A stretch of DNA of 64,000 nucleotides from Tubiluchus corallicola (taxonomy: Eukaryota > Priapulida > Priapulimorpha > Priapulimorphida > Tubiluchidae), in the NCBI GenBank assembly GCA_030141605.1, contig JAQGDQ010000400.1, forward strand, positions 148,866 through 212,865, written 5' to 3'. The position numbers were made by a program, and so were the translations under genes. The first letter of the stretch is position 1. Every line of letters starts with the position of its first letter. Positions 20,342 through 21,785 of this stretch are shown one piece after another. The notes under the pieces are model-generated. The model had not been told where the DNA came from. It made no database searches and worked only from the letters and a program-made list of their open reading frames with translations.

Positions 20342-20545
20342 GTCACATTTACCAAAAGGAAGTTCGGGCTGATGAAGAAAGCTTATGAATTAAGTGTGCT
20401 CTGTGATTGTGAAATCGCACTCATCATTTTCAATAGTAGTAACAAACTGTTTCAGTATGCTAGTACTGATATGGACAAAATATTACTCAAGTATACAGAA
20501 TACAGTGAGCCACACGAGAGTCGGACCAACAATGATATTATTGAG
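20342..20545 (+). CDS. Mef2: MEF2 coding exon 2 (rest of MADS box and MEF2 domain)
   Basis: Encodes residues 19-86, from [20 protein letters not shown] through [20 protein letters not shown] to the MEF2-specific extension ending SRTNNDIIE. Together with exon 1 this is the complete DNA-binding, dimerisation and cofactor-docking unit (residues 1-57 MADS, 58-86 MEF2 domain). Residues known to bind class IIa HDACs, p300 and other cofactors in the family lie in this region. The length of 68 codons and both phase-0 junctions match the animal-wide exon structure. The oddity is at the 3' end: the last 12 bases (GATATTATTGAG) and the donor (GAG|GTAGGT) form the first unit of the 67-bp satellite that follows. 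Confidence 0.98.
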
Positions 20546-21785
20546 GTAGGTAGATTTATATTTTCATGAGTTAGCAATACAGTTTTTGATATTATTGAGG
20601 TACAGTTGCATGTACAGTAGATTTACAGTTTCATGAGTTAACTATACAGTTTTTGATATTATTGAGGTACAGTTACATGTACAGTAGATTTACAGTTTCA
20701 TGACTTAACAATACAGTTTTTGATATTATTGAGGTACAGTTACATGTACAGTAGATTTACAGTTTCATGACTTAACAATACAGTTTTTGATATTATTGAG
20801 GTACAGTTACATGTACAGAAGATTTACAGTTTCATGACTTAACAATACAGTTTTTGATATTATTGAGGTACAGTTACATGTACAGTAGATTTACAGTTTC
20901 ATAACTTAACAATACAGTTTTTGATATTATTGAGGTACATTTACATGTACAGTAGATTTACAGTTTCATAACTTAACAATACAGTTTTTGATATTATTGA
21001 GGTACACTTACCAGTACAGTGGATTTACAGTTTCATAACTTAACAATACAGTTTTTGATATTATTGAGGTACACTTACCAGTACAGTAGATTTACAGTTT
21101 CATAACTTAACAATACAGTTTTTGATATTATTGAGGTACATTTACATGTACAGTAGATTTACAGTTTCATAACTTAACAATACAGTTTTTGATATTATTG
21201 AGGTACACTTACCAGTACAGTGGATTTACAGTTTCATGACTTAACAATACAGTTTTTGATATTATTGAGGTACACTTACCAGTACAGTGGATTTACAGTT
21301 TCATAACTTAACAATACAGTTTTTGATATTATTGAGGTACACTTACCAGTACAGTAGATTTACAGTTTCATAACTTAACAATACAGTTTTTGATATTATT
21401 GAGGTACATTTACATGTGCAGTAGATTTACAGTTTCATAACTTAACAATACAGTTTTTGATATTATTGAGGTACACTTACCAGTACAGTGGATTTACAGT
21501 TTCATAACTTAACAATACAGTTTTTGATATTATTGAGGTACACTTACCAGTACAGTAGATTTACAGTTTCATAACTTAACAATACAGTTTTTGATATTAT
21601 TGAGGTACACTTACCAGTACAGTGGATTTACAGTTTCATAACTTAACAATACAGTTTTTGATATTATTGAGGTACACTTACCAGTACAGTAGATTTACAG
21701 TTTCATAACTTAACAATACAGTTTTTTATATTATTGAGGTACACTTACCAGTACAGTGGATTTACAGTTTCATAACTTAACAATA
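20534..21785 (+). repeat. 67-bp satellite seeded by the MEF2 exon end and splice donor, ~18 intronic units
   Basis: The exonic GATATTATTGAG at 20534-20545 recurs at 20588, 20655, 20722, 20789 and then every 67 bp to 21727 (the last copy is TATATTATTGAG). Each intronic unit keeps GAG|GTAC where the true donor has GAG|GTAG. The first unit is 54 bp because it lacks a ~12-bp stretch. Two variants alternate: GTACAGTTACATGTACAG and GTACACTTACCAGTACAG. The array stops exactly at the TA that borders the Tigger-like MITE. Confidence 0.95.

What the first reader, a model, noticed from the sequence alone, without database searches (positions are those of the whole stretch)
20534..21785. Satellite array born from a MEF2 coding exon end and its 5' splice site
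The last 12 coding bases of the MEF2-domain exon plus GAG|GT are the first unit of a 67-bp tandem array. About 18 further copies of GATATTATTGAG|GTAC follow in the intron. Each copy keeps a plausible 5' splice site, so the transcript offers a long series of decoy donors next to one of the most constrained exons of the gene. Each unit also holds AATACAG before the exon-like motif, so it carries a tiny acceptor/donor pair around 17 bases. Use of any decoy donor would add intronic codons or a stop. The array could buffer or tune splicing, or it could be a tolerated accident of replication.
Basis: partly seen in the sequence, partly recalled or inferred. Interest (0 to 1): 0.8.

Follow-up and report, generated by a model that had tools for sequence, protein, structure and literature searches.

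The report
Intronic minisatellite seeded by MEF2 exon end
A short stretch spanning the end of a muscle-gene exon and the start of its intron was copied about 18 times in a row inside the intron; the copies carry only weak splice signals, so it is most likely a tolerated accident of a kind already known from human genes.

Summary
The last 12 coding bases of exon 2 of the only MEF2 gene found in this assembly, plus its 5' splice site, form the first copy of a tandem array at 20534-21785: copy 1 of 54 bp, 17 copies of 67 bp, one partial copy. All 19 assembly matches to the unit lie here, so it is a single-locus minisatellite, not a satellite. The array stops exactly at the left end of a 410-bp TA-flanked transposon (21786-22195), whose first four bases, CAGT, also stand at that point in copies 1-18. 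The founder was probably exon end + intron start + transposon edge. Decoy donors (GAG|GTACA[G/T/C]) are much weaker than the true one (GAG|GTAGGT): U1 pairing -5.7 to -6.9 against -12.0 kcal/mol. The 17-base acceptor/donor pair has poor acceptors. Any decoy use meets a stop at 20567, so decoys can only truncate MEF2. Best reading: a tolerated local duplication, with the true donor dominant. Human CBS and ABCA7 carry arrays of similar build; ABCA7 shows one-unit retention, so rare leak to a decoy remains possible. No RNA, other individuals or relatives could be examined.

The parts
14779..14832 (+). MEF2 exon 1 coding part (MGRKKIQISRIGDERNRQ), donor CAG|GTAAGG
   Evidence: motif scan of the translated window and printed donor region; exon ends read by eye
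20342..20545 (+). MEF2 exon 2 (most of the MADS box and start of the MEF2 domain), true donor GAG|GTAGGT after 20545
   Evidence: Pfam SRF-TF 3.9e-20, PDB MEF2 chains, best 2e-40, donor score 5.03 bits and U1 duplex -12.0 kcal/mol
20534..20587 (+). array copy 1, 54 bp: 12 exon bases plus 42 intron bases
20588..21726 (+). array copies 2-18, 17 x 67 bp, each with decoy GAG|GTACA[G/T/C]
21727..21785 (+). partial copy 19, with the last decoy (GAG|GTACAC after 21738), ending at the TA that flanks the transposon
20567..20569 (+). in-frame TGA met by any transcript that runs past the true donor to a decoy
21786..22195 (+). 410-bp DNA transposon copy with inverted CAGTGTTC... ends and TA at both edges (21784-21785, 22196-22197)
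   Evidence: 819 candidates, 40 scored in the assembly; ends compared in 30 loci
31533..31700 (+). MEF2 exon 3 (LLNKKENKGCDSP...), acceptor TTTCTAG|TTG, likely donor GCT|GTAAGT
   Evidence: PF12347 match 7.0e-8 inside it (31557-31688), ORF, sequence printed; exon end read by eye

Best explanation
A local tandem duplication copied a segment running from the last 12 bases of MEF2 exon 2 to the left edge of a transposon that sat about 34-47 bp into the intron. Later rounds of unequal exchange or slippage took it to 19 copies. The 18 extra copies share a changed stretch after GTA, so they are poor 5' splice sites. The true donor at 20545 stays by far the best near the exon, and the array is spliced out with the roughly 11-kb intron. 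It is an essentially neutral minisatellite. Shown: anatomy, exon identity, uniqueness in the assembly search, weak decoy scores, exact abutment with the transposon. Inferred: order of events, use of 20545 only, neutrality. The confidence given is for the exon-derived, effectively neutral array; the transposon-first order alone I put at about 0.75-0.8.
For: Exon and array anatomy. True donor 5.03 bits and -12.0 kcal/mol; the 18 decoys -0.84 to 0.44 bits and -5.7 to -6.9 kcal/mol; of 771 GTs in the intron one other (23658) scores at least as high as the true donor, and decoys sit at the 88th-93rd percentile of intron GTs outside the array. The U1 5' end ATACTTACCTG is seen in 2 of 6 fetched U1 loci; the other 4 were printed from their other end and not checked further. 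Decoy use leads to the stop at 20567. The array ends on the TA of a TA-flanked element: 25 of 29 readable left ends and 22 of 26 readable right ends have TA, in 30 loci including the window's own. Copies 1-18 carry CAGT, the element's first four bases, at that point. In the 200 bases after its right end nothing array-like is found. Of 29 other copies none abuts an array, nearest 236 bp (two pairs share their left flank). Arrays are common here: 6.06% of the window and 5.7% of 100,443 bases around those 29 copies.
Against: No RNA data. In human ABCA7 a similar array goes with retention of one unit (PMC5954066), so weak use of a decoy cannot be ruled out. The donor scores use human-type frequencies recalled from memory, not this species' own introns. 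Arrays are scarce around 30 kinase loci (2 of 30 loci, 0.7% of 112,530 bases; these loci are biased to long open frames), so one touching a conserved exon is less expected than in bulk sequence. In copies 2-18 no column of 1-17 varies, which could hint at constraint, though the numbers are small.
Confidence: 0.74

Rival explanations
1. The array is a working decoy or poison region: some transcripts splice from a decoy donor (most likely the first, 20599, adding 54 nt), meet the stop at 20567 and are degraded, so array length tunes MEF2 dose.
For: Each of the 18 later copies has GAG|GTA; decoy use gives a stop; ABCA7 shows one-unit retention and length-dependent splicing (passages); no variable column in 1-17 among units 2-18.
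Against: Decoys are far weaker than the true donor; nothing here shows that they are used. Only 10 of 67 columns vary in units 2-18; that none falls in a given 16 has a chance of roughly 0.05 (worked by hand).
Confidence: 0.12
2. The array is older; the transposon jumped into its last unit later, and the array end beyond it was lost or happened to lie there. (Concerns the order of events only; compatible with a neutral array.)
For: TA in AATACAG is a legal target; three TA sites in a consensus unit are followed by CAGT, so the shared CAGT is not decisive by itself (sequence).
Against: No array remnant in the 200 bases after the right end: best local score 13, reached by 482 of 500 shuffles. 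It would need the array to end within about 3 bp of the insertion site. The right flank TACTGC also follows three other copies of the element (L019, L021, L028, of 25 other readable right ends), so it looks like an ordinary flank of this element, not like the array's TACAGT.
Confidence: 0.2
3. Units act as micro-exons (17 nt after AATACAG) or as recursive-splicing steps (TTATTGAG|GTA).
For: AG and GT occur in the right order in each unit; the GAG|GT acceptor reaches the 90th percentile of 570 intron AGs at best.
Against: AATACAG acceptors score -5.6 to -3.5 against 6.0 and 8.5 for the authentic exon 2 and 3 acceptors, with recalled frequencies; GAG is a poor acceptor (recalled); introns of about 50 nt would be needed; one, two or three micro-exons all bring a stop.
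Confidence: 0.03
4. Assembly artefact in array length or in the exon/array join.
For: Short-unit arrays are often mis-sized in assemblies (general knowledge); some contigs in this assembly look like duplicates (L010/L011, L014/L015).
Against: Units differ from each other in an ordered way and copy 1 is distinct; no N in the window; one match to this exon in the assembly.
Confidence: 0.04

Closest known systems
Human CBS 31-bp VNTR, c.1444_1467+7(16_21) (PMC2630376, passages seen; tabled as 'exon 13-intron 13' in PMC1395315, passages seen)
   Same: By its name the unit spans the last 24 coding bases of an exon, the donor and the first 7 intron bases; 16 to 21 copies.
   Different: 31-bp unit there; 67-bp unit with 12 coding bases here. 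CBS length varies between people; here unknown. The passages seen do not speak of a transposon at its edge.
Human ABCA7 intron 18 VNTR (PMC5954066, passages seen)
   Same: Array starts at the exon's own donor and repeats it; about 12 to 427 copies observed.
   Different: 25-bp unit whose first two bases are the GT; splicing effects shown, with use of a donor one unit further on. Here the decoys are clearly weaker than the true donor and no RNA is available.
Intron gain by tandem duplication (PMC4974935, abstract and outline seen; PMC2891723, passages seen)
   Same: Tandem duplication involving a splice junction or proto-splice site copies splice signals.
   Different: There a duplication makes a new intron; here many copies lie inside an existing intron and give no new one as far as can be seen.
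TA-inserting DNA transposons with CAGTG ends (Tc1/mariner-pogo type; family name recalled, not tested)
   Same: TA at most edges, inverted ends, copies of 345-577 bp in the loci where both ends were read.
   Different: No transposase looked for; superfamily not established.

Membership tests
Exon-boundary-spanning minisatellite (CBS/ABCA7 type) | Tandem unit contains the exon end and/or its own 5' splice site | tested here: met
Exon-boundary-spanning minisatellite (CBS/ABCA7 type) | Array confined to one locus | tested here: met
   19 of 19 matches lie in one array in the assembly search (very common words are skipped)
Exon-boundary-spanning minisatellite (CBS/ABCA7 type) | Copy number differs between individuals | not testable with these tools
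   one assembly, one copy of the locus found
Exon-boundary-spanning minisatellite (CBS/ABCA7 type) | Repeat-unit donors affect splicing | not testable with these tools
   no RNA data; scores only
Satellite DNA | Long arrays at many places, typically heterochromatic | tested here: not met
   1.25 kb, one locus
Intron gain by tandem duplication | Duplicated junction supplies both a usable donor and a usable acceptor | tested here: inconclusive
   weak donors and acceptors by score, no RNA
MEF2 | MADS box joined to MEF2 domain | tested here: met
   PF00319 in exon 2 and PF12347 in exon 3, PDB MEF2 chains
Tc1/mariner-pogo type element | TA target-site duplication and inverted ends | tested here: met
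   25 of 29 readable left and 22 of 26 readable right ends with TA, 30 loci
Tc1/mariner-pogo type element | DDE/D transposase of an autonomous relative | not tested
   no search made

The most novel reading that the evidence does not exclude
Donor weakening was the licence for amplification: only a unit whose copied 5' splice site had already been disabled (bases after GTA changed by a roughly 13-bp event) could multiply beside a dose-sensitive exon, so such arrays record selection against donor competition; and the remaining weak decoys give a low, length-dependent truncation of MEF2, with the transposon edge setting the breakpoint.
Probability: 0.12. Interest if true: 0.55.

Novelty: new member of a known kind. 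Interest (0 to 1): 0.32.

Why it matters
It is a clear natural example of a minisatellite made from an exon's own end, next to a highly conserved transcription-factor exon, probably in an invertebrate (one MEF2 gene found in a 343.5-Mb assembly; that vertebrates usually have four is recalled). Its internal contrast, one strong donor and 18 weak copies, makes splice-donor competition and the limits of tolerance testable. The shared edge with a transposon gives a concrete hypothesis on how such arrays start. If splicing is unaffected, it is simply an ordinary tolerated array.

Tried and rejected
Hairpin masking of decoy donors: opening energies (true donor 5.65, decoys 4.38-7.43) lie within about 1.5 standard deviations of shuffled flanks; the three GTACAT units are highest; not pursued. 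U1-like ACTTACC in 10 units as a mask of the true donor: duplex -9.4 kcal/mol, reached by 58 of 1000 shuffles, and the donor's opening energy with the real array (5.45) lies inside the range of 12 shuffled arrays, 3.79-7.99; not supported. Systematic link between this transposon and arrays: 0 of 29 other copies abut one; rejected as a general rule. The 30 loci compared were taken from the 40 scored candidates (the ten cut out by that search and 20 chosen); the rest, among them copies near contig ends and broken ones, were not looked at. Unit fragments elsewhere: local scores of the unit against pieces of the rest of the intron reach 23, and 20 at the exon 2 acceptor; no shuffles were made for these; I took them as chance. 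Constraint on the exon-like part of the copies: too few variable columns to claim. Higher-order repeat: lag 4 identity 0.983 in units 8-18 against 0.964-0.978 at other lags; weak, not interpreted. Direction of the 13-bp difference (gain in the array or loss in copy 1): undecidable from one genome. Kinase loci as a base-rate sample are biased towards long open frames. The joins used exon 3 to 31692, 8 bases short of its likely end; this does not change the stops. Paper searches: no paper; 15 of 57 listed; 12 of 29 listed; no MEF2 array of this kind was seen in the listings; the three papers were not opened.

Full report
What is there. Exon 2 of a MEF2 gene lies at 20342-20545 (68 codons). It matches Pfam SRF-TF at 3.9e-20 and MEF2 chains of the PDB, best 2e-40. 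Exon 1 (14779-14832) ends CAG|GTAAGG (ends read by eye). Exon 3 begins at 31533 and holds the PF12347 match. In the assembly (G000, 343.5 Mb, 2344 contigs) the MADS family gave 7 matches: this exon, two pieces on contig C464 over the cut-off (probably an SRF gene, not checked), and four below the cut-off.

The array. Copy 1 (20534-20587) is 54 bp and holds the last 12 coding bases GATATTATTGAG. Copies 2-18 are exactly 67 bp each, and copy 19 is partial. The 12-mer is absent elsewhere in the window, and the intronic part of copy 1 aligns to that of copy 3 with a score (48.5) far above 20,000 shuffles (maximum 19.5). All 19 matches to the unit in the assembly search lie in this one array. Between copy 1 and the rest there is a 13-bp difference directly after the donor's GTA: GTAGGTAGATTT in copy 1, GTACAGTTACATGTACAGTAGATTT or close variants in the others. 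Units 2-18 vary at 10 of 67 columns, all between columns 18 and 56.

The right edge. The array stops at 21785. At 21786 a 410-bp element begins that is common in this genome: 819 candidates at first look, 40 scored. I compared 30 loci, the window's own included. A left end was readable in 29 and had TA before it in 25; a right end was readable in 26 and had TA after it in 22 (two pairs of loci share their left flank and may be duplicate contigs). Here the element lies between TA and TA. Copies 1-18 read AATA-CAGT-TTTT before the next copy (copy 2: TATA-CAGT), and the element begins CAGTGTTC, so the first four bases of the element seem to belong to the founder unit. In the 200 bases beyond the element no trace of the array is found, and its right flank TACTGC recurs at three other copies (L019, L021, L028 of 25). 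None of the 29 other copies has an array at its edge; the nearest lies 236 bp away. The simplest order is: element inserted 34-47 bp into the intron, then duplication from exon end to element edge, then amplification. The reverse order needs the array to have ended within about 3 bp of the insertion. I put the first order at about three to four to one; it is an inference.

Direction. The three MEF2 alignments printed have DILE or DIVE at this place, so the exon text is constrained and older than the array. The exon is the source.

Splicing. With human-type frequencies (recalled) the true donor GAG|GTAGGT scores 5.03 bits, the 18 decoys -0.84 to 0.44. U1 pairing is -12.0 against -5.7 to -6.9 kcal/mol. 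Of 771 GTs in the intron one other (23658) scores at least as high as the true donor. The usual U1 5' end is seen in 2 of 6 fetched U1 loci (L038, L041); the other four were printed from their other end and not checked further. Any transcript that runs past the true donor to a decoy meets TGA at 20567, about 30 bases before the first decoy (20599); one search printed this for four of the 18 decoys, and it follows for the rest because the stop lies before them all. One, two or three 17-base micro-exons all bring a stop. Their acceptor AATACAG scores -5.6 to -3.5, against 6.0 and 8.5 for the authentic acceptors of exons 2 and 3. So decoys offer only truncation, and the array is best seen as spliced out with the intron from 20545. 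That is an inference from scores.

Base rate. Arrays with periods of 20 bp or more and score 100 or more make up 6.06% of the window (11 arrays, 6 of them with 3 or more copies) and 5.7% of 100,443 bases around 29 transposon copies, but 0.7% of 112,530 bases around 30 kinase matches, of which 2 hold an array (these loci are biased to long open frames). Minisatellites are thus common in this genome and scarcer near coding sequence. One that takes in an exon's edge without harming it is uncommon but not astonishing.

Against this reading. ABCA7 shows that an array starting at an exon's donor can go with retention of one unit and with exon skipping (PMC5954066, passages). CBS has a 31-bp VNTR named c.1444_1467+7 with 16 to 21 copies, that is 24 coding and 7 intron bases per unit (PMC2630376, passages); the title of a cited paper (Lievers 2001, seen only as a reference) links it to reduced CBS activity. 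So a mild effect on MEF2 is possible. No RNA, population or relative data could be reached here.

Verdict. The finding is correctly observed. Its novelty is that of a new member of a known kind: an exon-boundary-spanning minisatellite, here in a MEF2 gene, with weakened decoys and a transposon at its far edge.

Noticed in passing
6941-7826, 18423-18717, 33140-33355, 43386-43533, 44260-44785: Further minisatellite arrays with units of 29-74 bp and 3-14 copies; with this array and five two-copy ones, arrays make up 6.06% of the window.
   Followed up: partly
20990-21785, minus strand: Ten units hold CACTTACCAG, whose reverse complement CTG|GTAAGTG is a near-perfect donor on the other strand and which resembles the 5' end of U1 on the sense strand.
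   Followed up: partly
22196-22202 and L019, L021, L028: TACTGC follows the right end of the transposon in four of 26 readable copies, this one included, and several matches run a few bases past the end; either a target preference or a slightly longer element.
   Followed up: no
49372-49918: 42 copies of a 13-bp unit (TCATGTCTACTGT), 80% matches.
   Followed up: no
L010/L011 and L014/L015: Pairs of transposon copies with the same flank bases on different contigs, suggesting duplicate or allelic contigs in the assembly.
   Followed up: no
G000 contigs C1974, C2072, C2074, C2107, C1752, C1831: Six kinase-domain matches with identical score and one TAG each, probably a kinase fragment spread within a repeat family.
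   Followed up: no
55216-55872, minus strand: Open frame of 218 aa, rich in serine and proline, perhaps an exon of another gene; not identified.
   Followed up: no
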